Below are positions 16,513 to 56,396 of a stretch of 64,000 nucleotides of DNA, piece after piece. The notes under the pieces were generated by a model. That model ran no database searches. It was not told the DNA's origin and saw only the letters and a list, made by a program, of their open reading frames with translations. Both the position numbers and the translations under genes were made by a program. This stretch comes from CBDBIG01 sp965205845 [NCBI: bacterium] (GTDB taxonomy: Bacteria; SAR324), in NCBI GenBank assembly GCA_965205845.1, contig CBDBIG010000005.1, forward strand, positions 62,001-126,000, written 5' to 3'. Each line of letters starts with the position of its first letter. The stretch's first letter is position 1.

Positions 16513-16551
16513 CTATTGATTGAGCCACAGGTGTGCATGGCGCATATTGAG
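16433..16551. repeat. 49-bp tandem repeat at the 3' end of the solute-binding protein gene
   Basis: Full copies lie at 16433-16481 and 16482-16530, with a partial copy from 16531 that is the gene's own end. Read on the minus strand, each unit repeats the last codons (MRHAHLWLNQ, then stop) plus about 17 bp downstream. A diverged match lies at 53822-53868. Confidence 0.93.
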
Positions 16552-39708: not shown

Positions 39709-41109
39709 TTATTTCCCAATGCAAAAGCGAGAAAACACCAGCCCCAGTACATCTTCGGTGGTGGTATGCCCCACGATATCTCCTAAAGCGGTTAAAGCGC
39801 AATCCACCTCTACAGCCAAGAGTTCTTCATGACCATGCTGCACACTGATTTGCAGGGCACGCTCCACGGCAACCATGGCACGCTGGGCCGCATTTATTTG
39901 GCGCATATTGGTCAGCAAGGCCTCTTCGGTTTGGGGTCGGCTGCCCTCAAAGCACCAGTCTAGCACCTTTTGTTTTAGTGCATTTAAACCCATATTTTTT
40001 TTGGAAGAAACCCTAAGCCAACGGTATTTTTGGAGCCGTTGATGCCAGCTGGGTGTGTCTGTTGACATGGCATCTTGCTTGGCAATAAGCACCAAACTTT
40101 GCTTCGGGTTGGTTTTTTGTAAAATGTCGAGGCCTTCTTGGCTTAGTGGTTGCGTACCATCGAGCACCACCAAACCAAAATCCGCCTGCTTCCAAGCGCG
40201 TTTTGAGCGCAACACCCCTTGCTGTTCGACTGCATCGCTGGTATTGCGTAGGCCTGCTGTGTCAACCAAGCGGACCGCCAAGCCTTCCCACTCGACGGCT
40301 TCTTCAATGGTGTCGCGCGTGGTCCCTGGCATGGCAGAAACAATGGCACGTTCTTCTTGAAGCAAGGCATTGAGCAAACTTGACTTGCCTGCATTGGGTG
40401 GGCCGATCAATGCAATGGTCAACCCTTCGCGTATTCTGCGCCCTTTTTCCGCATTGTCGAGCAGGGCAAGCAAATCGGCTTGAATCCCTTGCAGTTGGGT
40501 GTGCAACGGTGTTTGCGCGTCGCGTTGGGTGTGCTGTTGTACGTCGCCCTCATCGGAAAAATCGATGCAGGCAGCAAGGTAGGCTCCTAGATGTTGGAGG
40601 CGTTGTTGCAGGGCTGCGATGCGTTGTTGCAATCCGCCGCGCAGCTGTTCAACCGAGCCCCGCAAGGCGAGCGCAGAATCTGCCTCGATAATATCTGCAA
40701 CGGCTTCCACTTGGGTGAGATCTAAACGCCCATGCATAAAAGCGCGCCATGTAAACTCGCCAGGGTTTGCCAACCTAGCACCCTGGTTAAGCACTGCAGC
40801 CAACACGGTGCGTTGGGCCTGTTTGCCACCATGGCAATGCAGTTCCGCCACGTCTTCTCCCGTGTAGGAGCGCGGTGCGCGCATGGCAACGGCCAAGGCT
40901 TCGTCCATCAAACCATCGCTGGTTTTAACCCAACCGTAGCGCATTTGGTGTGAGGGGGAGTGCTGTAAGGCCCTCCCTTTTGCGGTGCAAAACACCGCAC
41001 TGGCATGCTCTAATGCCTGTTGGCCACTGATGCGAATTACCCCAATGCCCCCGCTTCCATGGGGGGTGGCGATGGCAGCAATGGTATCTTTGTGATTCCA
41101 CCCTTTCAC
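39709..41109 (-). CDS. mnmE: tRNA uridine-5-carboxymethylaminomethyl modification GTPase MnmE
   Basis: 466 aa GTPase that with MnmG modifies wobble U34 of tRNA. The N-terminal domain has [21 protein letters not shown] (two blocks), the GTPase Walker A is GPPNAGKSS near 238, DTAGLR is G3, and the C-terminal CIGK motif binds formyl-folate chemistry. The start is set at GTG 41109, seven bases after AAGGA, though TTG codons just upstream are also possible. Confidence 0.95.
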
Positions 41110-41197
41110 CAACAATTCCTTATCCGGGCTCGGTTTTTGCTGCCAATAACGTGTGGATTACGGGCGGAGGATGCCTAAAACCCATCGATGGATGGCG

Positions 41198-41713
41198 TTA
41201 GCGCAGGTCGTGAGGAAATATACGGCGGTAGTGTGCCTCGCCTAAAAGGTGGAGCACAACTTGCTGATCCTGATCGCGCAGGTTGGAAAAAGCAAGCCTT
41301 ATGAGCAAAAAGTTCGCGCGAATAACGTCAATGGCGCGTTGCTTGTCAAGGTCGTCATAATAACCACAGCTGCGGACCGAACGTGCTGCTTCAATCGAGG
41401 ATGTACCAAGGCGGTGTGTGTTGTAAAGTGCCGTGCTTGTGCGTTTTTCATAGTAAAATACCAAGCGCTCTTTGGCTTCTTTGTGCAGGGCGTTTGAAAG
41501 CTGCAACCAATAACCGGCACAAGTCAGGCGTGGTTCCATTGCGCCAATGGAGGCGTTTGATTGAAGCCCCCTGCAGCTTGCCATCGAAAAAGCAAAAACC
41601 AACAGGATCCATGGGGTAATCCAAGTCCCACTCGAGGGTAGGGGCGTTGCTTGGCTCGGCAAATGGGGCTTGGCTACCACAGATTTTGCAAGATCCAAAT
41701 CATTGGAAGGCAT
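41198..41713 (-). CDS. probable lipoprotein of unknown function
   Basis: 171 aa from the ATG at 41713. A hydrophobic segment (WILLVFAFSMASC, about residues 34-46) ends in a lipobox-like MASC, but it is preceded by an unusually long polar N-terminus. The rest is helical with EAKERLVFYYEKRT and a Tyr/Arg-rich end. It lies between mnmE and the flagellin island on the same strand. No family recognised; a role in the cell envelope is an inference from the signal. Confidence 0.5.
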   Translation of the reverse strand: MPSNDLDLAKSVVAKPHLPSQATPLPSSGTWITPWILLVFAFSMASCRGLQSNASIGAMEPRLTCAGYWLQLSNALHKEAKERLVFYYEKRTSTALYNTHRLGTSSIEAARSVRSCGYYDDLDKQRAIDVIRANFLLIRLAFSNLRDQDQQVVLHLLGEAHYRRIFPHDLR

Positions 41714-41788
41714 GGCATGGTTTCCGTATTTATGGGTCAAAGGGTGCAAGATAACAAGGGAGGATGGGTGTGGTTTCACAAGTGAAGG

Positions 41789-41940: not shown

Positions 41941-43428
41941 CTAATCTACCAAACGTAACACCGCACGTGGAATTTGGTTTGCCTGGGCCGACAGCGCTGC
42001 CCCTGGTTCAAACACAATTCTCTCTTTGGTAAAGTTAGCCAATTCTGCTCCAAAATCCACATCGCGAATCACCGAATCAGCGGCCTGTAAGTTCTCCATT
42101 GCAACACGCAGGGTAATGAGGTTGGTTTGCAGCGTGTTTTTTTGCAATGCTCCGAGGTCGCCCCGCCTACGGGTGAGTTCACCAATGGCGCTATCCACCA
42201 ACAAAAGGCTGTCAAAAGCCGCTTGTGAATTGAGGGTCACATCAATTTCGCCTAGGTTGTTAAAGCGGCTGCTGTTGCCTGTCTCGCGGGCCAGGGAATT
42301 GGTAGAAACGTTGGGTAAGGCTACCACCAAACTTTGGCCTGCATTGGCGCCCAAATTAAAGGTAAGCGCATTGTTAATGACGGCTACCCTCCCCACAACA
42401 CCCGTTTCAAACACTTGGTCTACACTCTCATTGCCTACGTCATCAAATTGACCCGTTTTTTCTTTTTTGCCAAGGTAGCACACCAACAGTCCGTCGCTAT
42501 TCGCATTCCCCACCAAACCTTTTAAAATTGCCCCATTTCCTACGGCAGGTTCGCCGCCAATGCTCCCCGCAATGTCTTGTCCTGCTACGGGCGCAATCAA
42601 GGTTTTGCTGTTTGCAAAATCGCCTTGGTCTGCGAATACGCCCAACAAAAACGTGGCTCCCTTGCCATAATTTTTATGAATTACCTCAATCCTGCCATCT
42701 TCTAAGATACTAAAATCAATCGCGAGCCCGCTTACTGCAATCGACTTGCGTGCCTTAGCCTGTAAACTGCTTAGAGTGTCCGTTGCTGTTCCCACGACCT
42801 CTGCGGTTTTTTCACCTTCGAAAAAGCTCAGGCGTGCGCCATTGACATCTTTTTGTTCAAGGTGATTCTCGGTGAGCAACCTCGTTTTGGTGGCGAGTTG
42901 GGTGAGGTTTACCGCATATCCTTCCACCGCAGAAGTACGTGTGTTTTCATTGGCAAAAACGAACACCAAGCCTTCACCTTGAGCAAAACCCGTGGTACCC
43001 GCGCTGCCATCAAGCAAGTTACGTGAGCCAAATTGGGCATTTTTTGCAATGCGGTCGATACTGTCTAAAGCATTGCGGATTTTTTTCTGGTCGGCTAACA
43101 CGGCATTCTTGTCGTTACCGCCTTCGTTACCAGCGTGCAAAACCAATTGACGCACCCGTACCAGGAGATTATGAACCTCTCCCAAAGAGGACTCGGCCGT
43201 ATTCACCAAGGCAGCCGCGAGTTCAGAGTTGGCCACTGCCTGGTTGAGCCCTGCAATTTGCCTGCGAAGCCGTTCAGAGACAATCAATCCACGAGGGTCA
43301 TCGCCTGCACTGTGAATGCGAAAGCCTGAGGAAAGGCGCTGAAGCAAATCGGCTAAGCGGCGGTTGGAGCTACCCAAAAGGCGTGCGCTGCGCTGCGCTG
43401 CGATATTGGTATTAATGCGTAAAGTCAT
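41941..43428 (-). CDS. flagellin, most diverged of the four canonical copies
   Basis: 495 aa flagellar filament protein exported by the type III system. The N-terminal D0/D1 start MTLRINTN, RLSSGFRIHSAGDDP and the C-terminal SVIRDVDFGAELANFT and QANQIP are present but less canonical than in the other copies, for example FEPGAALSAQ in place of LQQA.TAMLAQ. One Cys is present in the middle (LVCYLG). The variable middle has the flagellin_IN-type VIHKNYGKGATF. AAGGA lies about nine bases before the ATG. Confidence 0.93.
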   Translation of the reverse strand: MTLRINTNIAAQRSARLLGSSNRRLADLLQRLSSGFRIHSAGDDPRGLIVSERLRRQIAGLNQAVANSELAAALVNTAESSLGEVHNLLVRVRQLVLHAGNEGGNDKNAVLADQKKIRNALDSIDRIAKNAQFGSRNLLDGSAGTTGFAQGEGLVFVFANENTRTSAVEGYAVNLTQLATKTRLLTENHLEQKDVNGARLSFFEGEKTAEVVGTATDTLSSLQAKARKSIAVSGLAIDFSILEDGRIEVIHKNYGKGATFLLGVFADQGDFANSKTLIAPVAGQDIAGSIGGEPAVGNGAILKGLVGNANSDGLLVCYLGKKEKTGQFDDVGNESVDQVFETGVVGRVAVINNALTFNLGANAGQSLVVALPNVSTNSLARETGNSSRFNNLGEIDVTLNSQAAFDSLLLVDSAIGELTRRRGDLGALQKNTLQTNLITLRVAMENLQAADSVIRDVDFGAELANFTKERIVFEPGAALSAQANQIPRAVLRLVD

Positions 43429-43522
43429 CACTCATGTCCTTTTTGGAACTGCAACTTAACAAGAAGGCAAACGATGTTTTAAGAAAAAGCCCGCCCATGG
43501 GTGTCTGGTTGATCCAACACGG

Positions 43523-44965
43523 TTAATTCCACATCAAATCGGCCCTTTCTTTGTGAGCGACCATGTTTAATCCTTGCCAAGGTTTTAAGGGGGCCACCCA
43601 TGCCTTCCGGTTTAACTTTAGGCGCAAACGTTGCTGCATCTTTAGGCAGATGTCATTCAGATCGCTTTGGGGTTTTTGTGCAATAGGCTGAACCATATGG
43701 GGCTTGATATGCGCGTACGCAAACAGGTTTTGTGCATGTATTTTAAGTTGGCTCAGCGCACTAGGACCCGTTTGCAAGCGGAGGTCTTCAATCGTGCATA
43801 AAGAGAAGGCAATTTCTTCGAGGGCTTTACAGGCCATTGTGTAGCAGTCCATGGTTTGGCGTGGATTGCCTGCTTGCATGGTGGCCAAGCTGGTAAAATT
43901 GCTGGTCGTGTTCACCCCTTTGGCTAAGTCTCTGGCTCTTGCTGGAGCCAAATGCAAAATGAACTTGCTATCATTTCCCTCATCCAACGCGTGCAGACGC
44001 AAACTACTTTGCAGCACGTGAATCCATCCTGTTTTAGGGGGCTGGGGGGTATGGATGCTTACACCAAAGGGGTGATTTTGTACGCGCTCTACCACAAGCC
44101 CGGTGGTGCGAGGGTTTCCCGTACGTCCCATCAGCAAAGAGCCTTGCCCAATGCCTGGTTCGTGATGAATCTCACCTTGTACATCCAAACCATTGCCCAC
44201 CCAATGCCAGTTGGGGTTGGCTACCCCGAGCAAGGTAACAGGGGCGCAGCGTACCCAAAATCCGTAACTGCTGCCACATTGCAGGTGACGAATGTGAATG
44301 TGCCCTTTTGTGCTTAAGGATACCACCAAAGGAAGCTGGTGCTTGTATACCTCATACTGCATCCAGCGTAAAAAATCGACCACGGGCACTTTCCCTTGTA
44401 TTTCACAGCCAATCACAGTGCTCCCTATGCGGAGCATCAAGGTAATCCCCCTGTTTAAAACCTCGGGGGTGAGGGCGAGTTGCCCTTGAATATGGCTTGG
44501 AACGGGTTCTTGGGTAATGCGTACTTTATAACCTTTTGCAGGGGAACTTTTGGTCAATGCAGAGGCCATCACAAATTGAAAGCCATCTTCAGTGCTCCAT
44601 CCTTTGGCGCCAAGGGTTCCGCTTAGGAGGTTTAAAGGGCCAAAGTGTGCATTGGCGCTGTATGTATCAAGGTGCTTTATTCTTTGACTTAACCAAGATT
44701 GTAATGCTTTGCCAATGTGCTCAGGGTTGCGCAAGGCTTTTTGTAGTTCTTGTGCTATCTCTTTGAGCGTTTTATGCATCAGGCTCAATGCAATTTTTGC
44801 TTGGTGCAGTGAACCCATGGCGTGCTCGGTCAAGCGAATATCGCGTTCTAATTTGGCAAGGGCTTCGCGCTGCTGTTGGGCATTCCAAAGCCACGGCGTG
44901 GGATGGTTGCCCACGTTGTGATCTGCGCTGCTGCCTTGCACGAGTTGTTGCGCGGTGCTTTGCAT
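43523..44965 (-). CDS. divergent flagellin-like protein A
   Basis: 480 aa. It aligns by pattern with the neighbouring flagellins through the middle: NAHFGPLNLLSGTLGAKGWSTEDG (in pieces) corresponds to flagellin FGARKLLDGS..NG..IGD, SSPAKGYKVRITQ to the SxxxGYAVRITQ segment, and DVQGEIHHEPGIGQGSLLMG to D..G..DGE.G.GEG..L.G. The N-terminus lacks MxLRIN..., RLSSG and the C-terminal SVIRD...QANQ end, so normal D0 coiled-coil packing is not expected. It has about seven Cys, whereas canonical flagellins here have none or one. It may be an accessory filament protein or a decaying copy, but the frame is intact over 480 codons. Confidence 0.75.
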   Translation of the reverse strand: MQSTAQQLVQGSSADHNVGNHPTPWLWNAQQQREALAKLERDIRLTEHAMGSLHQAKIALSLMHKTLKEIAQELQKALRNPEHIGKALQSWLSQRIKHLDTYSANAHFGPLNLLSGTLGAKGWSTEDGFQFVMASALTKSSPAKGYKVRITQEPVPSHIQGQLALTPEVLNRGITLMLRIGSTVIGCEIQGKVPVVDFLRWMQYEVYKHQLPLVVSLSTKGHIHIRHLQCGSSYGFWVRCAPVTLLGVANPNWHWVGNGLDVQGEIHHEPGIGQGSLLMGRTGNPRTTGLVVERVQNHPFGVSIHTPQPPKTGWIHVLQSSLRLHALDEGNDSKFILHLAPARARDLAKGVNTTSNFTSLATMQAGNPRQTMDCYTMACKALEEIAFSLCTIEDLRLQTGPSALSQLKIHAQNLFAYAHIKPHMVQPIAQKPQSDLNDICLKMQQRLRLKLNRKAWVAPLKPWQGLNMVAHKERADLMWN

Positions 44966-45336
44966 GGCGTGTTTACTTCTTACTATTTGTAAATCACACA
45001 GCCTTTATCTTAAGACGTGCTTTTGGTTACGTAATGGAGCGCTTATCGTGTGTAGGCAGTTCATCGCATTCACCAAGACTATAGGCCTTTTATGCCTGTT
45101 TTTAAGTCGAACAAAATGGCAAGCAGTTGCTGGGCAAATGGCCAATCGAAAACGGGCTTTTTCGTGATGGAATTCATTTTGAAGCGGATTTGACGAGAGT
45201 CTTTTTTTAAACCAAATCTGCTTTAATATGCACTCCATGGGTGCGCATGTGTCCGTTTTTGCGCAAGCAAGGCAACAGCCAAAGGGTTTTTGAATTTGGC
45301 TTGGCTGTTGCTGCTTTTGCGATTTACGCCTTGGGG
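44966..45336. other. 371-nt intergenic region inside the flagellin island
   Basis: Holds an 11-bp inverted repeat (45272-45311) just after the flagellin gene that ends at 45337, and upstream sequence of divergent flagellin-like gene A. No gene is seen. Confidence 0.45.
45272..45311 (-). terminator. perfect 11-bp stem-loop after a flagellin gene
   Basis: GCAACAGCCAA (45272-45282) pairs perfectly with TTGGCTGTTGC (45301-45311) around an 18-nt loop, 25 nt after the gene's stop. No strong T-run follows on the minus strand, so it may stabilise the mRNA rather than end transcription. Confidence 0.6.
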
Positions 45337-46785
45337 TTAACCCAACAAGGACAGCACCGATTGTGGTGCCTGGTTGGCTTGCGCCAACATGGCCGTTGTC
45401 GATTGTACCAAGATGTTGTTTCGCGTATAGTCCGTGATTTCTTTTGCCATATCGGCATCGCGAATAACGGACTCTGCATTGGTCAACTCTTCGAAGTTAA
45501 TGCGCAGCTGGCGAATGTTGGTTTCGAGTGAGTTCTTTTGGAAAGCACCTAATTCGGCGCGGTTGCGGTTGATTTCAGTCATGGCACTGCTTAGCAAACG
45601 CTGTGCGTCTTCTGCGCCTTGGAGATTGCGGATATCAATATCGCGCAAATGTTCATAACCACTCGCATTGTCGACGTTGCCACCCAGTGAGCGCGTGTTG
45701 GCGTTAACCAGAGAAATGGTTTCTTTTTGACCAACCGTAGGACCCACTTGAAAGTTGAGAGAGTTTTGGAACAGTGCAACACGCCCTGCTAATTCACCAT
45801 TTTCAGCGTCATCGGTTTGGATATCGCCCGAATAATTAATGACCAAGTCTTCAGCACGCGTGCCTTCGGCACCACTTAAAAACTGCCCTTCCCCAATACC
45901 CACTTCACCATCGAAGGTGCCGCGAATGTCCACACCTACATGGCGTTCTACCGTATTGGCTTTATTCGAAAGTACACCTGCGGTACTTGAAGAAAAGTCA
46001 ATTGAGTGATTTGCTCCATATTCTTTATGCGTGAATGACAGTGTATCGTCATCGTTGAGTTCCATATCGATGAGCAAACCGGCCGATTCGACCACATTGC
46101 GCAACTTGCTTACCACTTGGCTGGCGGTATCGCCTGCTTCGGTAATGAAGGTAATGGTGCGTCCACCCTCTGCAATGGTGAGTTTTTCACCGTTGTCAAT
46201 TATATCTTGAGAAAGACCCGTTGTGCCTTCAATACTGGCGCGTTCAGCCAATTGCGTAATGCGGACAGCATACCCTTCAATCGAGCTGGTTTTGGTGTTT
46301 TCACCTGCATCAACAAAGCTTAGGTTATCGCCAATGGCAATCCCGTTGGCTGCATTGCTCCCATCAAGGAGTTTGCGTGCGCCAAACTGGGCAAACTGGC
46401 TAATTTTGTCAATCGCATCCAAAGAGCGGCTAAACTCCAAATAATCCGCTTCTAGGGTTTCAGGGGAGTTGGCTCCTTCGTTTGCCGCGTGAATGGCCAA
46501 GCGGTTAAGGCTGGTGAGTGTGTTGGTGAGTTCACTTAAAGCGGCTTCTGTGGTTTGCACCATGGAAACAGCCACCTCAGAGTTTTCGGTGGCTTGGCTG
46601 ATGTTTGCTACCTGGGAGCGTAATTGCTCGGAGATCATTAAACTGGCAGGGCCATCCGCTGCACGGTTAATTTTAAGACCAGAAGACAGTCTCTCTAAAG
46701 AGCGAGATAACTGCTGGCTATTTTGCAGCAAATTGCGGTGGGTGTTTAATGCGGGAACGTTGTGATTAATGCGCAGACTACTCAT
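45337..46785 (-). CDS. flagellin
   Basis: 482 aa, Cys-free filament protein. The D0/D1 N-terminus has LRINHNVPALNTHRNL, ERLSSGLKINRAADGPASL and the C-terminus SVIRDADMAKEI and AQANQAPQSVLSLLG. The middle holds one flagellin_IN-like repeat (FTHKEYG). The ATG at 46785 is preferred: GGAAGGAA lies just upstream. A sigma-28-like promoter lies about 160 nt upstream. It is close to the next flagellin (47087), so the two are a recent duplication. Confidence 0.96.
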   Translation of the reverse strand: MSSLRINHNVPALNTHRNLLQNSQQLSRSLERLSSGLKINRAADGPASLMISEQLRSQVANISQATENSEVAVSMVQTTEAALSELTNTLTSLNRLAIHAANEGANSPETLEADYLEFSRSLDAIDKISQFAQFGARKLLDGSNAANGIAIGDNLSFVDAGENTKTSSIEGYAVRITQLAERASIEGTTGLSQDIIDNGEKLTIAEGGRTITFITEAGDTASQVVSKLRNVVESAGLLIDMELNDDDTLSFTHKEYGANHSIDFSSSTAGVLSNKANTVERHVGVDIRGTFDGEVGIGEGQFLSGAEGTRAEDLVINYSGDIQTDDAENGELAGRVALFQNSLNFQVGPTVGQKETISLVNANTRSLGGNVDNASGYEHLRDIDIRNLQGAEDAQRLLSSAMTEINRNRAELGAFQKNSLETNIRQLRINFEELTNAESVIRDADMAKEITDYTRNNILVQSTTAMLAQANQAPQSVLSLLG

Positions 46786-46938
46786 GGCGAGGTTCCTTCC
46801 TATGGCCATTGTTTGAGAATAAAATGACAGTCGTTTACGTCGTTATTTTTCCAATGCCAACCACAGGGAGATGCGGGGGATCAGAAATCTAAAAACAGTT
46901 AAGTAATTGAAATTACTACTAATTTTTAGTTATTATAC

Positions 46939-46965
46939 GTAACGGCTTGCGCTATCAAAACTTAA
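46939..46965 (-). promoter_or_regulatory. sigma-28-like (FliA) promoter for the flagellin at 45337
   Basis: Read on the minus strand: TTAAGTTT, 11 bases, then GCCGTTAC. The E. coli FliA consensus is TAAAGTTT-N11-GCCGATAA; 7 of 8 and 6 of 8 positions agree, with exact spacing. The site lies in the 301-nt gap between the two similar flagellin genes, which otherwise shows only a small hairpin (47066-47081) after the upstream gene. Confidence 0.6.
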
Positions 46966-47086
46966 AAATAAAAATCCATTTTATTTAAAAATAACAAGCC
47001 ACACTCAAACCCAATGATGGAACCCATTTTTTACGATGTGCCCCACCACCGGGGTAGAGGATGAAAATCTCGAGCGAGATTGGGGG

Positions 47087-48532
47087 TTAACCCAACAAAC
47101 TCAAGACATTTTGAGGCGCCTGATTGGCCTGCCCCAACATGGCCGTAGCAGATTGTACGAGAATGTTGTTGCGGGTGTACTCAGAAATTTCCTTAGCATA
47201 GTCTGCATCACGAATGACCGACTCTGCATTGGTAAGTTCCTCTGCGTTAATGCGCAATTGACGCAAGTTGGCTTCAAGTGAGTTCTTTTGAAACGCACCC
47301 AATTCAGCACGATTGCGGTTGACTTCTGTCTGTGCGACATCCACCAACCGTTGTGCATCCTCGGCCCCTTGCAAGGTACGAATGTCGATATCGCGCAAAT
47401 TTTGAAAATTGCTTGCATTATCGATTCCACGCCCTAATACGCGCGAACCAGCATTGACAAGTGCAATCGTTTCCGATTGTCCTACCTTGCCACCCACTTG
47501 AAAAGTGAGTGAGTTTTGGAACACAGCAACCCTACCTGCAACCTCCCCAGTTTCACCGTCATCGGTTTGGGTGTTACCCGTATAGTTAACCTGTAATTCC
47601 TCTGCTCTAGTGCCAATAGCCCCAGTTAATACGCGACCTTCACCTGTGGCAACATCACCGTCGAACGTACCTTGCACATCAAGGCCAGCTTTGCGCTCAA
47701 CCACACCACCCACCTCAGATAGCACGCCATCTGAAGCAGAAACATAGTTAAACTCTTTTGCTACACCGTACTCTTTGTGCTGTATGTGAAGTGTGTTGTC
47801 CTCGGTTAATCTCACATTAATATTAAGCCCCGCATCACTGATGACATTATCCAACTTGTTGACAACTTGGCTGGCTGTGTCGCCAGCGGTGGTTGTAAAA
47901 GTTACGGATTTTCCACCTTCAGACAAGCTAAAGGTTTCACCTGCATCAATCAGTTCTTGGCTTAATGCCGTTGTACCTTCCGTGCTCGCTTGTCTACCCA
48001 GTTGGGTAATGCGGACCACGTATCCTTCAACGGGACTGGTTTCGGTTGTGGCACCAGCACCTAAAAATCGCACCCCATCGCCAATGGCAATCCCATTTGC
48101 ACCCGTGCTTCCATCAAGCAGCTTGCGCGCGCCAAATTGAGCATTTTTGCTAATGTTATCGATGGCGTCTAAAGAGCGTGTAAATTCTAGGTGATCAGCC
48201 GCCAAAGTTTCGGGAGAGTTTGCCCCTTCGTTTGCCGCATGAATGGCAAGACGACTAAGCGAGGTTAACGTGTTTGTCAACTCGCTCAAGGCAGCTTCTG
48301 TTGTTTGTATCATTGAGATAGCCACTTCAGAGTTCTCCGTCGCTTGGTTTAGCCCAATCACTTGTGAGCGCAATTGCTCAGAAATCATCAGGCTGGCTGG
48401 TCCATCAGCAGCTTTGTTAATTCTTAAACCAGAGGAAAGCTTCTCTAATGATTTAGCAAGCGTCCCACTGTTTTCTAACAAGTTGCGATGGGTATTAAGT
48501 GCTGGAATATTGTTATTGATTCGCAGAGTCAT
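47087..48532 (-). CDS. flagellin
   Basis: 481 aa, Cys-free. N-terminus MTLRINNNIPALNTHRNL, EKLSSGLRINKAADGPASL; C-terminus SVIRDADYAKEISEYT and AQANQAPQNVLSLLG. The middle has the HKEYGVAKEF repeat and EGRVLTGAIGTRAEEL. A strong AAGGAGG lies before the ATG. Very like the flagellin at 45337 along its whole length. Confidence 0.96.
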   Translation of the reverse strand: MTLRINNNIPALNTHRNLLENSGTLAKSLEKLSSGLRINKAADGPASLMISEQLRSQVIGLNQATENSEVAISMIQTTEAALSELTNTLTSLSRLAIHAANEGANSPETLAADHLEFTRSLDAIDNISKNAQFGARKLLDGSTGANGIAIGDGVRFLGAGATTETSPVEGYVVRITQLGRQASTEGTTALSQELIDAGETFSLSEGGKSVTFTTTAGDTASQVVNKLDNVISDAGLNINVRLTEDNTLHIQHKEYGVAKEFNYVSASDGVLSEVGGVVERKAGLDVQGTFDGDVATGEGRVLTGAIGTRAEELQVNYTGNTQTDDGETGEVAGRVAVFQNSLTFQVGGKVGQSETIALVNAGSRVLGRGIDNASNFQNLRDIDIRTLQGAEDAQRLVDVAQTEVNRNRAELGAFQKNSLEANLRQLRINAEELTNAESVIRDADYAKEISEYTRNNILVQSATAMLGQANQAPQNVLSLLG

Positions 48533-49021
48533 TTACGAACCTCCTTGTAGTTAGATTTGCCAATCTTCAAAAAATGAGGCGATTTCTCGCTTTCGTATTT
48601 TTAAAGACCGCCTTTTAGGCTTACCTTAAGTACCCCGCTTCAATGTTTCCATTTTCGAGGGTTATCAGGTAAAAAGGCTCCTTTGCATATGGTGTTCTGC
48701 CCTAACCAAAGATTGATTAAGACACCACATATCAACGCTTTTGGTTATGTTCTTATGTTGGCCAAAAGGGTTGATCTTGTTAAAGGGTTTTGCTCGCAAG
48801 GATAAACTTTTGAGCGATGGCACTTTTAAAAGGCAACGTTGTGTCTGCAAAGAATTTTTTTACACAAAAGCGGATCGCTCTAACTACTTTTTCAATCGAA
48901 ACGCCTTCATCACAACGTGGTCTTATGGTTAAAATACCCCCTTTGGGTTTGGTGAAAAAAATTTGCCTTGTGGGCAAAAGGTGAATTTAAGTCAATTAAT
49001 CCATTTGACGAGAGGGTTTAT
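48533..49021. other. 489-nt intergenic region in the flagellin island
   Basis: Upstream region of the flagellin at 47087. No gene. No convincing sigma-28 or sigma-54 site was found by eye. Confidence 0.4.
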
Positions 49022-50368
49022 CTAATCTCTAGCCATTGCCTGTTGAAGCACCCAGGCCATTTGGGCGGCTTTTTGATGAAAAACATCTAGAGAACGCGTG
49101 GCTGTTGGTTGTGCCTTAACACTCGATGCGTATTTCAACTTTGCCATGGCGGCATCTTGCTTGCGTTTCATGGTGCCTTGAATTTTTTCGAGCCAGTCTT
49201 CCAGTTCGTAGGCAACGCTATGAAGCATGTGAATGGTATCTTTTACCTGAAACCACGAATGGCACGCGGCATGGTCTAAAGACAAAAAACCACTCGATGA
49301 GTCGACCCAATTCCCCAGTTTGCCTGGCTGGCACCAAGGTAGGGTAATGGCTGGGATAGCAGTGTGAGGATCGGCCGCTTCTTGCACAAAAATGCTGTTT
49401 TGCACCACATGGCAGTTTGCTTGTTTGTTTTCTTCAAGGGAGCGCTCGCCTGTCCAACACACCGCCAATTCTGCTGTGCGTTGGTTATCCAAAAGGCCTA
49501 CAAGCATGCGCCCCACGCCAAAAGCGTGTTCTCCGTCCAGTTCGCCTTGAATATCCTTGCCTTTTAAGCAGATTTCTAAGTGCCCTGGTTGTTGAGACAA
49601 AATGGAGGTGCGCCGGCTCAACCCACGGAAAATATGCTGTGAGCCATAGTGGTTATGTTGCAGCACAAGTCTCCCGCTGGGGCTAATTTGGGCTTCAAGG
49701 TTTAAACCTGCGCGCCAAATTTCCGTTTGCAAGCGCAGCACAAACGCCGTGGGGCTTTCATTTTTGTGTAAAAGCACCCGAATTTCTTGGTCGCTTTCAG
49801 TCAGTATCAGTTCTTGTTCCTCATTCATAAAAGCAGGGTGCAAAGGCGCATGGCCCATCAGCACAGAGCGTGTTGGGTAAATGCTGATGTTGACGGAAAA
49901 CCCTTGTGCAGGTGACGATTTGGTGTTTGGACCACCGCGCAAAAACCCGACACCGTTTCCCCAACCCACCACACTGCTTTGTCCATTTAACAAACCACGG
50001 CCATGAAATTTACAATTGCGAACGGTGTCGTCAATTTGTTGGGCAATGCTTTGCATGCACTGGTCTAAAGCAGGCAAAGGTTTGCTGTGCATGCTACGCA
50101 TTTCCCAATGGGTGTTTAAAAAATCGAGGCCAAAAGCAATTTTGCGCTGAATGTGCAAAATCCCCCGTTGTGTTTGTTGCAGTATGGAAACCGAGGTTTC
50201 TAGGTTGCGCAGAATTTGCTTTGTGTCCAACCATCCAGAATCAAAGTGTAGCCAACCACCGGGCTGCGGCATCCGCTCTGTTTGGCTTGCATGCATGCCC
50301 ACCTCGCCAAGGTTAAATTCCTTGGCTCGCATTTGGTGGGCATCGCTGGGAAGGTGTTGAATTTCCAT
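49022..50368 (-). CDS. divergent flagellin-like protein B
   Basis: 448 aa from the ATG at 50368; a TTG at 50410 could add 14 residues. Through the middle it follows the flagellin plan: CKFHGRGLLNGQSS (flagellin FAGRKILDGSSG), GVGFLRGGPNTKSSPAQGF (GDNLRFIKGSVNTNASPEGG), LQHNHYGSQHIF (SHKDYGSKESF) and KDIQGELDGEHAFGVGRMLVGL (QDVLATIGGEPTYGVGRLIKG). The closest neighbour by these stretches is the flagellin at 50444. The D0 N-terminus (MxLRIN, RLSSG) and the C-terminal SVIRD and QANQ segments are missing. About seven Cys are present. The start has no good ribosome site. Confidence 0.75.
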   Translation of the reverse strand: MEIQHLPSDAHQMRAKEFNLGEVGMHASQTERMPQPGGWLHFDSGWLDTKQILRNLETSVSILQQTQRGILHIQRKIAFGLDFLNTHWEMRSMHSKPLPALDQCMQSIAQQIDDTVRNCKFHGRGLLNGQSSVVGWGNGVGFLRGGPNTKSSPAQGFSVNISIYPTRSVLMGHAPLHPAFMNEEQELILTESDQEIRVLLHKNESPTAFVLRLQTEIWRAGLNLEAQISPSGRLVLQHNHYGSQHIFRGLSRRTSILSQQPGHLEICLKGKDIQGELDGEHAFGVGRMLVGLLDNQRTAELAVCWTGERSLEENKQANCHVVQNSIFVQEAADPHTAIPAITLPWCQPGKLGNWVDSSSGFLSLDHAACHSWFQVKDTIHMLHSVAYELEDWLEKIQGTMKRKQDAAMAKLKYASSVKAQPTATRSLDVFHQKAAQMAWVLQQAMARD

Positions 50369-50443
50369 AAAAAACGCTTTACTTAAAAAATCATGCAGTC
50401 TACGAAACAACAGGTAGGTTTCGCTTGCAATAAAACTTCACCT

Positions 50444-51883
50444 TTAGATGCCTTGGAGCAAACCAAGAACGTTTTGCGTGGTTTGGTTGGCTTGGGTTAG
50501 CATCGACAAACCCGATTGCAAAATGACCTTGTTGCGTGTAAATTCGCTCACTTCTTCCGCCATATCTGCATCTCTAATCACAGACTCTGCGGACAAAAGT
50601 TCCTCACGGTTTATTCGCAAGCTACGTATATTGGCTTCGAGTGAGTTCTTTTGAATGGCACCCAATTCACCACGCACGGCATTCAAATCTTCAATCGCTT
50701 TTTCCACCAAGCGCATCGCATCTTCGGCTCCTTGAAAACTACGCACATCAATATCGGCAAGCGCACGATAGCCGCTGACATTGTCAACGTTTCGCCCAAG
50801 TACGCCCGTGTTGACGCTGTTTAAGGCCACCTTTGTGATTTGCCCCACATCAGGCCCCGTTTGAAACAGCGCGGAGTGCTGAGCAAGCAAGACGCGCCCC
50901 ACCAATTGGTCTTCTTTATGGCCGTCGTAAATCATCTGGATGCCGTCGGTTTTAGCACCTGGGACGCCTTTTATGAGGCGCCCTACCCCATAGGTGGGTT
51001 CTCCACCGATGGTGGCCAAAACATCCTGGCCATTTTGAATGGTTAAAGGGGTTTTATTATCTTCGCCCAATACACCCCCCACACTTGAACTCACGCTAAA
51101 GGATTCTTTTGAGCCGTAATCTTTATGGGAAACTTTGATGCGACCATCATCGGTTAAGCTCACTTCCACGTTGAGGCCGCGCTCTTCTGCTTGCTTGCCC
51201 AACCTGTTAACAAAAGTTTGTGGAGTATCTTTTTCGAGGGGGACTAGGTCTGCTATTCTGCCACTTTCTTCAATGGTGACTCTTACATTGGCACCCAGGT
51301 CTTCATCGGTGAAAACCTTGGGGGCCGTATGGTGCGCACGGGTGGCAGCTTTTTGTACAAACACCCCATACCCACCTTCCGGGGAAGCGTTTGTGTTCAC
51401 ACTGCCCTTGATAAATCTTAAATTATCTCCTACGGCTACGCCGTTAACACCGCTGCTACCGTCCAAAATTTTACGCCCCGCAAAATTAGCGAACTTAGAA
51501 ATGTTGTCAATGGCTATCAAAGCATTTTCAATTTCTTGTTGGTCTGCCTCAAGCATGGCAGGCCCATTGGCCCCTTCGTTGGCAGCATGCACGGCCAAAC
51601 GGCGAATGTCGACCAACAGGCGGTTCACTTCACCTAAAGCGGATTCGGTCGTTTGCACCATCGAAACAGAGACCTCTGAGTTGCGAATGGCACCACCAAA
51701 GGCGGCCACTTGAGCACGCAGACGCTCCGAAATCATTAAGGTGGCAGGTCCGTCAGCTGCCCGCACAATCCTCTCCCCTGAGGAAAGGTGCTCGAGGCTG
51801 GTTTGCAAACGCTTGTCGGTGTTAAGCAAATGGCGGTGGGTGTTAATGGCTTGTGTGTTGTTGTTTACAACCAATGCTCCCAT
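50444..51883 (-). CDS. flagellin
   Basis: 479 aa, Cys-free. N-terminus GALVVNNNTQAINTHRHLL and EHLSSGERIVRAADGPATL; C-terminus SVIRDADMAEEVSEFT and LTQANQTTQNVLGLL. The ATG at 51883 follows AAGGAGA by seven bases. The middle has SHKDYGSKESF and EPTYGVGRLIKG. It is the first flagellin after the FliS genes on this strand. Confidence 0.95.
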   Translation of the reverse strand: MGALVVNNNTQAINTHRHLLNTDKRLQTSLEHLSSGERIVRAADGPATLMISERLRAQVAAFGGAIRNSEVSVSMVQTTESALGEVNRLLVDIRRLAVHAANEGANGPAMLEADQQEIENALIAIDNISKFANFAGRKILDGSSGVNGVAVGDNLRFIKGSVNTNASPEGGYGVFVQKAATRAHHTAPKVFTDEDLGANVRVTIEESGRIADLVPLEKDTPQTFVNRLGKQAEERGLNVEVSLTDDGRIKVSHKDYGSKESFSVSSSVGGVLGEDNKTPLTIQNGQDVLATIGGEPTYGVGRLIKGVPGAKTDGIQMIYDGHKEDQLVGRVLLAQHSALFQTGPDVGQITKVALNSVNTGVLGRNVDNVSGYRALADIDVRSFQGAEDAMRLVEKAIEDLNAVRGELGAIQKNSLEANIRSLRINREELLSAESVIRDADMAEEVSEFTRNKVILQSGLSMLTQANQTTQNVLGLLQGI

Positions 51884-52044: not shown

Positions 52045-52476
52045 TTAAACCACCATGCGCCGTTGCAATGGTTGCCTTGCATGGGGCCTTTTTCCGGCAG
52101 TTGTGTTTTTCAACACCAAAACCCAGCCTTCACGCAAAATGCCCATTACTTTGGCCATTCGCACGACCTGTGCTGCATTTTTGCGAAGGTTTGCTTCTAC
52201 AATTTGCTCAAATACAAACACGTAAAGGCGATGTAAATTTTTTCCAATATCGCCACCTTGTTCAGGCTTTAAACCGCTCAATAGCTCGGAAACAATGTCT
52301 GCACTGCGCGTTAGGTAGCGGTGTGCATTTTCAATCTCCTCGTTCTCAATACATGCAGCACCCTTGTTCATAAAGCGGATGGCACCATCGTAAAGCATCA
52401 CAATTAAGCGACTTTGGCTGGCGGTTTCAACGCTCGTCATTTCGTAAGCACTGTAAGGGCTCTGGGTTTGAGACAT
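52045..52476 (-). CDS. fliS: flagellar export chaperone FliS
   Basis: 143 aa. FliS binds the C-terminal D0 of flagellin in the cytosol and keeps it unfolded before export. Family marks are YSAYEM near residue 8, the SRLIVMLYDGAIRFM segment, and ENAHRYLTRSADIVSELLSGL, GGDIGKNLHRLYVFV. The C-terminus is a basic tail. It lies just upstream of the flagellin at 50444 on the same strand. Confidence 0.95.
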   Translation of the reverse strand: MSQTQSPYSAYEMTSVETASQSRLIVMLYDGAIRFMNKGAACIENEEIENAHRYLTRSADIVSELLSGLKPEQGGDIGKNLHRLYVFVFEQIVEANLRKNAAQVVRMAKVMGILREGWVLVLKNTTAGKRPHARQPLQRRMVV

Positions 52477-52610
52477 GGTGTGTTATGAATCCTTTTTTCT
52501 TATCCGCAGGCGAAAATGGCTTATTCAAATTTTGAGTAAACTTGCTTTTGTGCTGAATAACGGCTTGTTACCTGATGGTTACGGTGTATCTTCCCTAGGA
52601 CTTTAATTTT

Positions 52611-53075
52611 TTATTGCTTTAAACTTAATTTAGAACCTTGAGGGCCTGGGTGGCTTTGCATAGGGGCCGCTTTGTTGGGGGTTGAGGCTCTGTTTTCTGG
52701 CTTAATGTTTTGCCATCCTTCGCGCAAACTTTCGAGCAAACCCACCACTTGTACTAGGCGCCGCTTGTCTTTGCTGAGGTTGGCGTCAATCAGTTCGTTA
52801 AAAATGTAGATGTATATCCGCTGTAAATTCTTGGCAATGTCGCCACCAGCTTCAAGGTTTAGTGAGGCAAGCAGTTCTGTCACAATGCTTTTGGCACGTA
52901 CCACATAGGTGTGAAATAGGTGGAGACCTTTGGTATCGAGTTCCATTTGAATGGCTGCCTTAAGGCGACGAATGGCACCATCGTAAAGCATCAAAATCAA
53001 CGTGCGTTGGTCTGTAGTCGTTACCGAGTTTTTTTTGTAGGCATTGGCGCCCTTGCTGTATTGCTGCTTAAGCAT
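52611..53075 (-). CDS. second FliS-family flagellar chaperone
   Basis: 154 aa FliS paralogue with GANAYKKNSV near the N-terminus, RTLILMLYDGAIRRLKAA, and GGDIAKNLQRIYIYIFNELIDANL. A Pro/Gln/Ser-rich 25-residue tail follows the core. The ATG at 53075 matches the family start. With fliS it forms a tandem pair 134 nt apart. Confidence 0.92.
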   Translation of the reverse strand: MLKQQYSKGANAYKKNSVTTTDQRTLILMLYDGAIRRLKAAIQMELDTKGLHLFHTYVVRAKSIVTELLASLNLEAGGDIAKNLQRIYIYIFNELIDANLSKDKRRLVQVVGLLESLREGWQNIKPENRASTPNKAAPMQSHPGPQGSKLSLKQ

Positions 53076-53777
53076 GACGGGTTTTTGAACAACCTTTTTG
53101 TAAAAAACAAATGTGCAATGTGGAACATGGCAGACCATGCTCTTATGGGTTGCTTAACGGCAAGGTGGTGCAAAAGCTTAAAGGCTTGGTGATTTTTTCT
53201 TCTAAAAAATGCTTGTGAGCCGTGTTTTTTAAAGGCGGGCACGCGCTTGTTTTTTTGCGGGGTGTTTTTCCGCTGCCTCGAAGCAGCCTAGGCGGCGCGG
53301 GTGTTGACCCAAAAAACGGTACGCAAACGGCGCAAGACTCCCAAGGCGCACCTCCTTAGGCGTGTCCTGTTTTGAGGTCTTTCATTTGCTTGCGTTCTTC
53401 ACCAGCCTTTTTTTGGCTCAGGTGGGGATGGGGTTTTTAGCCTTGAGGGCACTCGTTTTGCCAGCACATCTCCCTGCAAGGATGTTCTGTCTGGCTTGGG
53501 CAACACAAAGTGGATTTTTTAAGAGACCCTTGCGAGGGCTTCCCCAGTTGAGATCGCTGAAAGGCTTGACCAAATCTCGATTTCTAAGGGTGTCGCTATA
53601 GCGTGCGAGCATCGGCACTAGAGTAAAAAATGGCGCACCTCCATTTGTGCTTGTTCAGCGCCTCGTTTGCCTGGCCTGCCTTTGGTGCTATCGCGTGCTG
53701 CCCAGAGCACCCGCCTACTTAAATGTTTGTCCCACCACTACGCGGCGGTTTACAAAGGGTGAATTCGCCCCGCTGCT

Positions 53778-54418: not shown

Positions 54419-56020
54419 ATGCGTATGCAAACATTTCGTGCTTGCTTACTCGCGCTGGTGTTTGGAATGGCCGCGTTGGTGGTGATACCAAGTGACAGCC
54501 ATGCACAACGACGTGGTGGGCAACTCAAGTATATGATTCCCGCTTCTGGTGCGCCCAGCTTAGACGCACACCGCGAGGCAACCTTTGCCACCATTCACCC
54601 AACCGCACCGTTTTACAGTTTGTTAATTCAAGTTGACCCAACCAGCAAAACGAATAAAATTGGGGGCGACCTTGCGACCAAATGGACGGTGAGTAAAGAC
54701 AAAAAAACCTACACCTTTACCTTGCGCCGCAATGTTAAGTTTCATGACGGCACACCGCTTACTGCAAAAGATGTGATTGCGAGTTGGCGTAAGCTGGTGA
54801 ACCCCGAAACCTATGGCAAAAACGTGGTAAGTTCGCGCAAGGGCTTTTTTTCCATGATTGAATCATACAAGGCTGTTGGCAAATACCAGGTTGTTTTTAA
54901 ATTAAAGCATCCGTCAGGAGCCTTTATTCCTGCTTTGGCCATGCCTTTTAACTATATCTACAAAGCTGCCATTTTAGAGAAAGACCCCCATTATCACGAA
55001 AAAAATGTGATGGGCTCTGGCCCGTTTCAATTTGTTGAGTACGTTCCTGGTGGGCGCATAGCAGGAAAGCGTAACGAAAATTATTATATTAAAGGGCGCC
55101 CTTACCTAGATGGGTTTGAGGCCATTTTTGCCAAGAAGCAAAACGTGTATGTGCAAGCCATACGTGGCGGCCGTATACATGGCGTCTTTCGTGGTTTGCC
55201 CCCTGCCGCTGTGCAAGACCTGTTAAGGGCACGTGGAAAAACCTTAACCGTGCACAGAAGTACTTGGAATTGTGGAATGTACGCGACCTTCAACAGGGAC
55301 AAAAAACCCTTTGACGATGTGCGTGTGCGTCAAGCAGTGCACTTGGCCCTCGATCGCTGGGCTGCAAGCAAGCACCTGTCGCGCATTGCCATTGTAAAGA
55401 CCGTTGGTGCGTATGTCTTTCCCGGCCATCCTCTTGCCTTTACCAATGCCGAACTCCGCAAAGAGCCTGGTTATGGAGACATTAAAAAAGCCCGCGCAAA
55501 AGCCCGCCGCTTGTTAAAAGAAGCAGGGCAATCTAATTTGAAATTCGTCTTTCACAATCGTAATACCGACCAACCTTACAAGGTGGTGGGAACGTGGCTA
55601 ATTGACCAATGGCGCCAAATTGGCTTGAGTATTACGCAAGAGCCGGTTTCCAGTTCCCAATACTTTGGGCGGCTTCGTAGCCGCGATTATGATGTGGGAA
55701 TAGATTTTGGTTGTGAAGCGTTGGTAAACCCCTCGGTGGATATCTCCAAGCATCGACCAGGCCAGTCGAATAACTACAGCAGCTCTGGTCCAGACCCAAA
55801 GTTTGAGAAGATGTTTGCCCAGCAGTTGCGTGAGGGTGACCCTAAGAAGCAGCGCAAAATTATGTTGAAAATGCAGCGCTATGCTTTACGCGAAATGTGG
55901 ACTTCCCCTGTGTTGTGGTGGGATTTGGTGCTGGTGCACGACAAAAAACTGCGAGGCTTTAACATTGGTCCGAGTCACTACTTGAACATTGGTCATGCCA
56001 ATGTTTGGTTAGATAAATAA
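54419..56020 (+). CDS. ABC transporter substrate-binding protein, peptide/nickel family (SBP_bac_5)
   Basis: 533 aa periplasmic protein with signal peptide (hydrophobic to about residue 28, SHAQ end). Conserved GAPSLDAHREATFATIHPTA (in blocks), NVKFHDGTPLTAKDVIASW, MGSGPF and NRNTDQPYKVVG. Equal in length to the copy at 16513. AAAAGGAG lies ten bases before the ATG. There is no permease gene beside it. A terminator-like hairpin follows. Confidence 0.92.
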   Translation: MRMQTFRACLLALVFGMAALVVIPSDSHAQRRGGQLKYMIPASGAPSLDAHREATFATIHPTAPFYSLLIQVDPTSKTNKIGGDLATKWTVSKDKKTYTFTLRRNVKFHDGTPLTAKDVIASWRKLVNPETYGKNVVSSRKGFFSMIESYKAVGKYQVVFKLKHPSGAFIPALAMPFNYIYKAAILEKDPHYHEKNVMGSGPFQFVEYVPGGRIAGKRNENYYIKGRPYLDGFEAIFAKKQNVYVQAIRGGRIHGVFRGLPPAAVQDLLRARGKTLTVHRSTWNCGMYATFNRDKKPFDDVRVRQAVHLALDRWAASKHLSRIAIVKTVGAYVFPGHPLAFTNAELRKEPGYGDIKKARAKARRLLKEAGQSNLKFVFHNRNTDQPYKVVGTWLIDQWRQIGLSITQEPVSSSQYFGRLRSRDYDVGIDFGCEALVNPSVDISKHRPGQSNNYSSSGPDPKFEKMFAQQLREGDPKKQRKIMLKMQRYALREMWTSPVLWWDLVLVHDKKLRGFNIGPSHYLNIGHANVWLDK

Positions 56021-56396
56021 GGCTTGTGATCATAAGCGCCTATTAGTTCATTTTCTATGTTGCGCTAGGGCGATCGCTTGATTTGCTCAAAGCCCTGCGC
56101 AGGAAAACAGATGCCTTCCATTTAGTCCGTCATGGGATGAGATGAGAAGGCATTTTTGTTGGTTTTTCACGGTTTTTAAAAAGGGCGGTTATTTGTTTTT
56201 TGTGACTGCTTGCTTGTTTATACTTGAACACATAGCCAAAGCATTGACTTACTGCCTGTTGTAGTGTAAATAGTGGCTTACTATCGTGTGAGCCTCGCCC
56301 CTGTGCTTACTCTAATGCTTATTCTAATGTAGCAGTGGCGTGCGGCTGGCCGATGTACCCCCCACCTTGTTATAGCAGGAGGCTTTGTTATTCACT
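56021..56396. other. 376-nt intergenic region
   Basis: Holds a hairpin terminator (56111-56158) and the promoter region of the next gene; no gene seen. Confidence 0.5.
56111..56158 (+). terminator. intrinsic terminator after the solute-binding protein gene
   Basis: ATGCCTTC (56111-56118) pairs perfectly with GAAGGCAT (56146-56153), followed by a T-run. Confidence 0.75.

What the first reader, a model, noticed from the sequence alone, without database searches (positions are those of the whole stretch)
41941..51883. Flagellin island alternating canonical flagellins with two Cys-containing, D0-less flagellin homologues
On the minus strand the order is flagellin (50444), divergent B (49022), flagellin (47087), flagellin (45337), divergent A (43523), flagellin (41941). 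The two divergent proteins keep long intact frames and a flagellin-like middle (paired LLDG/LLNG, GYxVxI, HxxYG and GE..GxGR segments), but lack the N-terminal RIN/RLSSG and C-terminal SVIRD/QANQ segments that pack the filament core and bind FliS. Each has about seven cysteines, while the canonical copies have none or one. They may be accessory or surface filament proteins, export or assembly regulators, or a sheath component. I know of no described role for such a pair.
Basis: partly seen in the sequence, partly recalled or inferred. Interest (0 to 1): 0.78.

Follow-up and report, generated by a model that had tools for sequence, protein, structure and literature searches.

The report
Rootless flagellin pair in flagellin array
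Among the genes for its swimming filament this bacterium keeps two flagellin look-alikes that have lost the part needed to build the filament, and distant relatives keep them in the same places, which suggests a real job, probably inside the cell, that I found no description of.

Summary
The minus-strand array is fliS2-fliS1-F1-B-F2-F3-A-F4-(193-aa ORF)-mnmE. F1-F4 have both flagellin domains; B matches no Pfam family and A only part of Flagellin_N at E 0.029. Pseudogenes are unlikely: B-type genes stand apart by score in 21 of 52 genomes of a related phylum-level group, and A-type genes occur in each of G001-G010, with F1-B and A-F4-mnmE kept where contigs allow. 'No D0' is right for both window proteins, though A-type relatives keep vestigial ends. 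A third type (C) arose inside the canonical flagellins; one origin for all is rejected at p-AU 0.025, a grouping chosen after a first tree. Predicted folds are flagellin D1 plus a FliD-like middle domain. Cysteine, nearly absent from canonical flagellins (1 in 61,250 residues), is back at 0.7-1.5%. Conservation shifts from D1 towards the middle domain, and in B the middle is tighter than in its neighbour flagellin. Best reading: non-polymerising, probably cytoplasmic flagellin mimics working through the middle domain. Location and partner are inferred; cytosolic FliS is also Cys-poor. The taxon is unnamed.

The parts
49022..50368 (-). Divergent B: D0-less flagellin homologue, B-type (start uncertain, could be 50410 TTG)
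   Evidence: B-family HMM built without the window 477.5 bits vs canonical HMM 170.7; directly downstream of F1 in the window and in the 8 genomes where both lie on a fetched contig; model fits flagellin D1, Z 19.5
43523..44965 (-). Divergent A: D0-less flagellin homologue, A-type
   Evidence: A-family HMM built without the window 256.7 bits vs canonical 178.9; directly upstream of F4 in the window and followed by a flagellin in the 9 genomes whose fetched contig goes on behind A; model fits flagellin D1, Z 14.8; careful tree puts it inside the A clade (91/92), FastTree put it beside B
50444..51882 (-). Canonical flagellin F1 (upstream neighbour of B)
   Evidence: Flagellin_N 1.1e-28, Flagellin_C 9.7e-20; falls in an F1 clade with the flagellins upstream of B in relatives
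47087..48532 (-). Canonical flagellin F2
   Evidence: Flagellin_N 7.7e-33, Flagellin_C 2.7e-19
45337..46785 (-). Canonical flagellin F3
   Evidence: Flagellin_N 2.4e-32, Flagellin_C 9.7e-20; sigma-28-like site 46965-46939 upstream, 1 mismatch, though the window's 7 such sites are not above chance
41941..43428 (-). Canonical flagellin F4 (downstream neighbour of A)
   Evidence: Flagellin_N 1.3e-29, Flagellin_C 7.5e-15; F4 clade
52045..52476 (-). fliS1, flagellin export chaperone
   Evidence: PF02561 8.6e-34; a fliS pair precedes F1-B or B2 in relatives
52611..53138 (-). fliS2, second FliS paralogue
   Evidence: PF02561 1.5e-33; sigma-28-like site 53180-53154, 2 mismatches
41198..41779 (-). 193-aa protein of unknown family, conserved between F4 and mnmE
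   Evidence: no Pfam match; phmmer matches behind F4 in 9 of G001-G010, the contig of G008 ends before
39709..41115 (-). mnmE, syntenic anchor of the array
   Evidence: TrmE_N and MnmE_helical; brought in L001
39149..39631 (-). small helical protein; its counterpart in L001 matches FliT weakly (possible export chaperone)
   Evidence: no Pfam match in the window, FliT E 0.00069 below cut-off in L001; phmmer matches downstream of mnmE in several relatives

Best explanation
A and B are members of conserved families of flagellin-derived proteins that have given up polymerisation: they keep the flagellin D1 bundle and a FliD-like middle domain, but not the full D0 segments that build the filament core and serve export and FliS binding. 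(Shown: family conservation, gene order, loss of D0, predicted fold, constraint. Inferred: everything that follows.) They most likely stay in the cytoplasm and act as flagellin mimics in the flagellin production line: made beside a partner flagellin (B with F1, A with F4) and, in relatives, next to fliS and fliD, they use the middle domain to hold or titrate a factor that recognises flagellin before export, such as a modifying enzyme, an assembly chaperone or a homeostasis factor (FliW and CsrA are encoded in nearly all relatives). The C-type suggests that the same change evolved more than once.
For: B-type: 25 matches of 404.8 bits or more in 21 of 52 genomes, then a gap to 281.3 bits (13 of the 14 rows of the query alignment come from these genomes, but G004, G005, G010, G025, G044, G046 and G047, not in it, also score 449 or more with their best copy). 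A-type in each of G001-G010. F1-B and A-F4-(193-aa ORF)-mnmE kept although MnmE of G001 is only 47% identical. Models: B Z 19.5 to B. subtilis flagellin, model residues 40-423 on flagellin 47-259, and Z 17.9 to F41, the D0-less flagellin fragment; middle domain Z 9.4 to FliD D2-D3; A Z 14.8 and 10.8. Cysteine: canonical 1 in 61,250 residues (124 proteins), FlgE/F/G 0 in 7,613 (23 proteins), long FliD-like ORFs 4 in 9,115 (9 ORFs); A 37 in 4,513, B 34 in 3,708, B2 18 in 1,218, C 19 in 2,751; MnmE 52 in 5,378. Conservation shift: B D1 0.47/middle 0.58 against F1 0.69/0.52 in the same 8 genomes; A 0.29/0.38 against F4 0.61/0.47; C 0.58/0.66 against 0.90/0.77; the 95% intervals of all three differences of differences exclude zero, and the middle of B is more conserved than that of F1 (p 0.014). 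No hydrophobic signal near the start (largest 19-residue means 0.03 and -0.38). FliW in 48 and CsrA in 49 of 52 genomes.
Against: FliS, a cytosolic flagellar protein, is itself Cys-poor (5 in 3,446 residues, 24 ORFs), so Cys content does not cleanly mark location; two A-type proteins have 0 and 1 Cys. In A and C the middle domain too is less conserved than in the neighbour flagellin (differences -0.093 and -0.112), only less so than D1. A-type and C-type keep parts of the D0 ends, so their export is not excluded. Codon bias (ENC) gives no sign of lower expression; ribosome sites are only somewhat weaker (C p 0.03, B2 p 0.02 on 2 sites, B p 0.056, A p 0.16, B starts guessed). No partner was found; by eye, without a family search, the array gaps I looked at hold no convincing other gene. 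31 of 52 genomes, G007 among them, show no match above the score gap (assemblies are broken, so some may be missed), so B is not indispensable to the group.
Confidence: 0.45

Rival explanations
1. Exported accessory proteins: A and B leave the cell by the flagellar export system and decorate filament, cap or sheath through contacts between middle domains, without entering the D0-built core.
For: Middle domain retained, with a FliD-like fold; FliD of this lineage carries a stretch like the flagellin middle; A-type and C-type keep remnants of the ends. Fibrils and a sheath surround the flagella of magnetotactic cocci (PMC7175107, passages), though no link of that group to this one was found.
Against: Cysteine at 0.7-1.5% where exported axial proteins of the lineage have none or almost none; B has no D0 match at either end and no hydrophobic start; the middle of B is more, not less, conserved than that of its neighbour flagellin, unlike an exposed surface (not so for A and C).
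Confidence: 0.25
2. Specific homeostasis decoy: B (and A) bind FliW and/or FliS as non-exportable flagellin mimics and so set how much flagellin is made, much as the flagellin-FliW-CsrA switch does in Bacillus subtilis.
For: FliW and CsrA in 48 and 49 of 52 genomes; in B. subtilis FliW protects flagellin residues 11-34, 50-72 and 240-260 and FliS is wrapped by D0-C (PMC6070490, passages); the B model spans the counterpart of residues 47-259, so two of the three stretches could remain and the FliS wrap is gone; a regulatory flagellin, FljJ, exists in Caulobacter (PMC7591256, passages).
Against: The D1 region of B and A, where FliW would bind, has lost the most conservation; FlbT, the partner of FljJ, matched in 0 of 52 genomes.
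Confidence: 0.17
3. Decaying duplicates (pseudogenes or sequencing frameshifts) left in an expanding flagellin array.
For: Array of recent and old duplicates; 2 of 25 B-type matches carry one in-frame stop, both in genomes with another copy without stops; the C-type gene of G032 is split between frames; dN/dS of the C pairs is above that of most canonical pairs tried (0.12 and 0.43 against 0.04, 0.06, 0.12, 0.15).
Against: Same families, order and open frames in distant genomes; dN/dS below 1 in all pairs tried, and for two B pairs (0.27, 0.48) close to F1 of the same genomes (0.23, 0.46); own conserved motifs in B.
Confidence: 0.03
4. Silent sequence stores for gene conversion of the flagellin middle domain (surface variation).
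For: Placed inside a flagellin array and lacking the constant ends, as silent cassettes elsewhere do (recalled).
Against: Over the shared part B+B2 form their own clade (100/100) and A its own (91/92), apart from the canonical copies; the middle of B is conserved rather than diversified. No separate test for conversion tracts was run.
Confidence: 0.02

Closest known systems
F41 fragment of Salmonella flagellin (PDB 1io1)
   Same: Flagellin D1 plus outer domain without D0; B model Z 17.9, A model Z 12.2
   Different: F41 is a fragment of a normal flagellin (recalled: made by proteolysis); A and B are genes that encode the D0-less form
Caulobacter FljJ, regulatory flagellin
   Same: A flagellin paralogue that controls the others and cannot form a filament by itself (PMC7591256, passages)
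   Different: FljJ is glycosylated, exported and assembled, and works through FlbT (same passages); FlbT matched in 0 of 52 genomes here and A/B lack full D0
Canonical flagellins F1-F4 of the same array
   Same: Common ancestry over D1 and the middle domain, 21-24% identity
   Different: No full D0, Cys allowed, conservation shifted from D1 towards the middle domain
FliD filament cap
   Same: Middle domain of A and B resembles FliD D2-D3 (Z 10.8 and 9.4); a FliD gene lies beside the array in relatives (Pfam-checked in G001 only)
   Different: No FliD_N or FliD_C match in A or B or among the families listed for their relatives; D1 scores better with flagellins

Membership tests
Structural flagellin (FliC) | Complete N-terminal D0-D1 region (PF00669) | tested here: not met
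   B no match, A E 0.029 over profile 47-137 only, below cut-off; 3 of 14 B-family and 7 of 11 A/C-family members match Flagellin_N at E<=0.01
Structural flagellin (FliC) | Complete C-terminal D0-D1 region (PF00700) | tested here: not met
   no match in A or B; 0 of 14 B-family and 1 of 11 A/C-family members at E<=0.01
Structural flagellin (FliC) | D1 helical bundle fold | tested here: met
   B Z 19.5, A Z 14.8 against flagellin structures; models of moderate confidence (pLDDT 73.8 and 71.1), built on alignments that hold flagellins
Structural flagellin (FliC) | Polymerises into filaments | not testable with these tools
   needs proteomics or electron microscopy
FljJ-type regulatory flagellin | Works with FlbT | tested here: not met
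   FlbT 0 of 52 genomes, Caulobacter control positive
FljJ-type regulatory flagellin | Controls flagellin translation | not testable with these tools
   no expression data
FliD / hook-associated proteins | FliD_N and FliD_C domains | tested here: not met
   no such match in A or B, none among the families listed for their relatives
Pseudogene | Broken frames or unconstrained sequence in relatives | tested here: not met
   no stop in 23 of 25 B-type matches; conserved motifs; dN/dS below 1 in the pairs tried; one split C gene
Flagellar sheath or fibril protein | Secreted and located around filaments | not testable with these tools
   no fractionation data; Cys content and lack of a signal argue against

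The most novel reading that the evidence does not exclude
A phylum-level bacterial lineage has more than once turned flagellins into soluble, non-exportable flagellin mimics whose working part is the former surface domain; they police or prepare flagellin in the cytoplasm and form a new class of flagellar control protein, in the window's branch each tied to a particular flagellin gene of the array.
Probability: 0.38. Interest if true: 0.78.

Novelty: new variant of a known kind. Interest (0 to 1): 0.64.

Why it matters
Flagellins are defined by the D0 ends that build the filament and serve export and chaperone binding. Conserved paralogues that dropped these parts, kept the rest (in B the middle domain is even tighter than in the neighbour flagellin) and lost the cysteine exclusion imply that flagellin can be recruited for a second, non-structural role. 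How bacteria with many flagellins arrange them in a filament is described as open for MO-1 (PMC7175107, passage); a non-polymerising copy beside a particular flagellin gene is a direct handle on such questions.

Tried and rejected
A genome scan with A alone found no relative; the scan with MnmE found L001 and so the related group (its second hit, L002, was not used). ENC as a sign of expression: inconclusive. Sigma-28-like sites: 7 in the window, 4.1 expected, 12 of 100 shuffles as many; two of them lie before F3 and fliS2. Sigma-54-like sites: fewer than expected. Sigma-70 and terminator scans: not above chance. FastTree put the window's A beside B on a long branch; the mixture-model tree puts it inside the A clade, and a place with B is not rejected (p 0.317), so its A identity rests on HMM score, synteny and that tree together. 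Disulphide-based function: judged unlikely, as the number of Cys varies between orthologues. The hope that genes between the flagellins would name the function: by eye the gaps shown held no convincing gene (output cut, no family search). Literature: the listings of searches in an open library showed no natural D0-less flagellin family (38, 76 and 79 showed only their best rows); several listed papers concern engineered D0 deletions. Searches looked for the taxon. Most subscription papers are not in that library.
Full report
WHAT IS THERE. On the minus strand of 53.1-39.1 kb the order is fliS2, fliS1, F1, B, F2, F3, A, F4, a 193-aa ORF, mnmE and a small helical protein. F1-F4 match both Flagellin_N and Flagellin_C. 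A matches Flagellin_N only over profile 47-137 at E 0.029, below the cut-off, and B matches nothing at E<=1. A profile of canonical flagellins of the relatives finds no lost D0 in any frame of the spaces around A and B, apart from F1's own end. B lies behind F1 with a short gap (its start is uncertain), and about 90 bases separate the end of A from the start of F4.

RELATIVES. A scan of GTDB species genomes with A found nothing. A scan with MnmE found L001, a 'Deltaproteobacteria' MAG with MnmE 47% identical, whose mnmE stands beside a flagellin array. In that genome (G001) the order is F0, fliD, fliS, fliS, F1, B, F2, F2', F3, A, F4, 193-aa-like ORF, mnmE, small helical protein. G001 belongs to a phylum-level group of which 52 genomes are held, all with matches to B or flagellins. 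I read array contigs of 26 of the 52. Where F1 and B are both on a fetched contig B follows F1: the window and G001, G002, G004, G005, G006, G008, G009, G010. G003 has B between pieces of flagellin genes, and a second B of G008 stands alone on a short contig. Where the contig goes on behind A a flagellin follows: the window and G001, G002, G003, G004, G006, G007, G008, G009, G010; it falls in the F4 clade in all of these that were whole enough for the tree (not G008). In G005 the contig ends behind A. G013, G014, G025 and G033 have fliD-fliS-fliS-B2-flagellins and no A on the contigs read. G011, G016, G018, G019, G022 and G032 have a third type, C, behind F0; a gene of G026, cut by my fetch boundary, scores as C and A alike. 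On the contigs I fetched of G012, G015, G027 and G037 no D0-less copy was seen, and only part of their arrays was fetched.

HOW WIDE. A B-family alignment searched against all 52 genomes gives 25 matches from 586.3 down to 404.8 bits in 21 genomes and then others from 281.3 bits down. Thirteen of its 14 rows come from those genomes, but G004, G005, G008, G010, G025, G044, G046, G047 and a second copy in G048 were not in it. Two of the 25 have one in-frame stop, and those genomes hold another copy without one. G007 and 30 other genomes show no match above the gap. Few members match known models: 3 of 14 reach Flagellin_N and 3 of 14 one NCBIfam flagellin model at E<=0.01.

DESCENT. Profiles built without the window give B 477.5 bits with the B model against 170.7 with the canonical one, and A 256.7 with the A model against 178.9. 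In a mixture-model tree of 53 proteins over the shared part, A (with the window's copy) is one side of a branch (91/92), B with B2 is another (100/100), and C lies inside the canonical copies beside flagellins of its own lineage (94/79). Holding all D0-less proteins together is rejected at p-AU 0.025; the grouping was chosen after the first tree, which weakens that p. So the change probably happened at least twice. The window's A is a very long branch, and a place with B is not rejected (p 0.317); its assignment rests on score, synteny and tree together.

FOLD. AlphaFold2 models (A pLDDT 71.1, pTM 0.50; B 73.8, 0.63; ends below 50) have long N-terminal helices, a beta middle domain and C-terminal helices. 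Against solved structures B scores Z 19.5 with B. subtilis flagellin from the FliS complex, model 40-423 on flagellin 47-259, and Z 17.9 with the F41 fragment; its middle scores Z 9.4 with FliD D2-D3. A scores Z 14.8 with the FliC structure 4cfi and 10.8 with FliD D2-D3. The rows of the input alignments include flagellins, so the fold is supported rather than independently discovered.

CHANGED CONSTRAINTS. Cysteine: 124 canonical flagellins hold 1 in 61,250 residues (the total follows from the odds ratios printed; the one is in the window's F4). FlgE/F/G-like proteins of relatives hold 0 in 7,613 (23 proteins), and nine long FliD-like ORFs 4 in 9,115 (one checked by Pfam). A holds 37 in 4,513, B 34 in 3,708, B2 18 in 1,218 and C 19 in 2,751, against 1.30% in ten other genes of the window (A and C are below these at p 0.03 and 0.02). 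Against this, FliS, which is cytosolic, holds only 5 in 3,446, so low cysteine is not limited to exported proteins. Conservation: in F1 of eight genomes D1 is more conserved than the middle (0.69 against 0.52), in B of the same genomes it is the reverse (0.47 against 0.58). A against F4 (0.29/0.38 against 0.61/0.47, six genomes) and C against its neighbour flagellin (0.58/0.66 against 0.90/0.77, five genomes) show the same shift; all three differences of differences exclude zero. Only in B does the middle exceed that of the flagellin (p 0.014); in A and C it is lower (by 0.093 and 0.112). dN/dS is below 1 in the pairs tried: C 0.12 for G018/G022 and 0.43 for G019/G032, canonical copies of that branch 0.04 to 0.15; B 0.27 and 0.48, F1 of the same genomes 0.23 and 0.46. 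The open frames used include some upstream sequence, which raises these values.

MECHANISM. Shown: two conserved, flagellin-derived families without full D0, tied by position to F1 and F4 and, in relatives, to fliS and fliD, with constraint shifted towards the middle domain. Inferred: they cannot enter the filament core; they are probably not exported (no D0 match at either end in B; no hydrophobic start; the cysteine exclusion is lifted); their work is done by the middle domain on something that recognises flagellin before export. A FliW/FliS decoy is a specific form of this: FliW and CsrA are present in 48 and 49 of 52 genomes, and B keeps the counterpart of two of the three flagellin stretches that FliW protects in B. 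subtilis (PMC6070490, passages). But D1, where these lie, is what lost the most conservation. FljJ of Caulobacter shows that a flagellin paralogue can be regulatory (PMC7591256, passages); its partner FlbT matched in 0 of 52. Export and decoration of the filament remains the main rival.

LIMITS. No expression, location or interaction data exist here. Expression proxies were weak: ENC inconclusive, ribosome sites slightly weaker for C, and B starts guessed. My literature searches covered only an open library and were seen as listings; of the papers I saw passages of three (PMC7175107, PMC7591256, PMC6070490). None of the listings showed a natural D0-less flagellin family.

Noticed in passing
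L043:6737-9877: FliD of this lineage (1046 aa, FliD_N and FliD_C confirmed) also carries a stretch like the flagellin middle domain (about positions 169-316 of the flagellin profile); similar long ORFs in other genomes of the group do too.
   Followed up: partly
window 41198-41779: A 193-aa protein without a Pfam match is conserved between F4 and mnmE in relatives with this array.
   Followed up: no
window 52045-53138: Two adjacent fliS paralogues are kept beside the array in many genomes of the group; why two is unknown.
   Followed up: no
L043:10301-11971: A longer flagellin (F0, 556 aa, matched in two pieces) stands before fliD in G001 and several relatives and is not seen in the window.
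   Followed up: no
window 15040-15439: Tandem array of a 44-base unit, about 9 copies, 96% matches, reading as a repeated peptide on the minus strand.
   Followed up: no
window 31169-31336: Perfect 84-base tandem duplication.
   Followed up: no
window 16513-18114, 54419-56020, 56385-58016: Three similar periplasmic peptide-binding-like proteins (named by eye, not searched), two of them beyond the fliS end of the array.
   Followed up: no
L073:7999-9481 and 17872-19430 (G032): A canonical flagellin and the C-type gene are each split between frames in this assembly, possibly sequencing errors.
   Followed up: no
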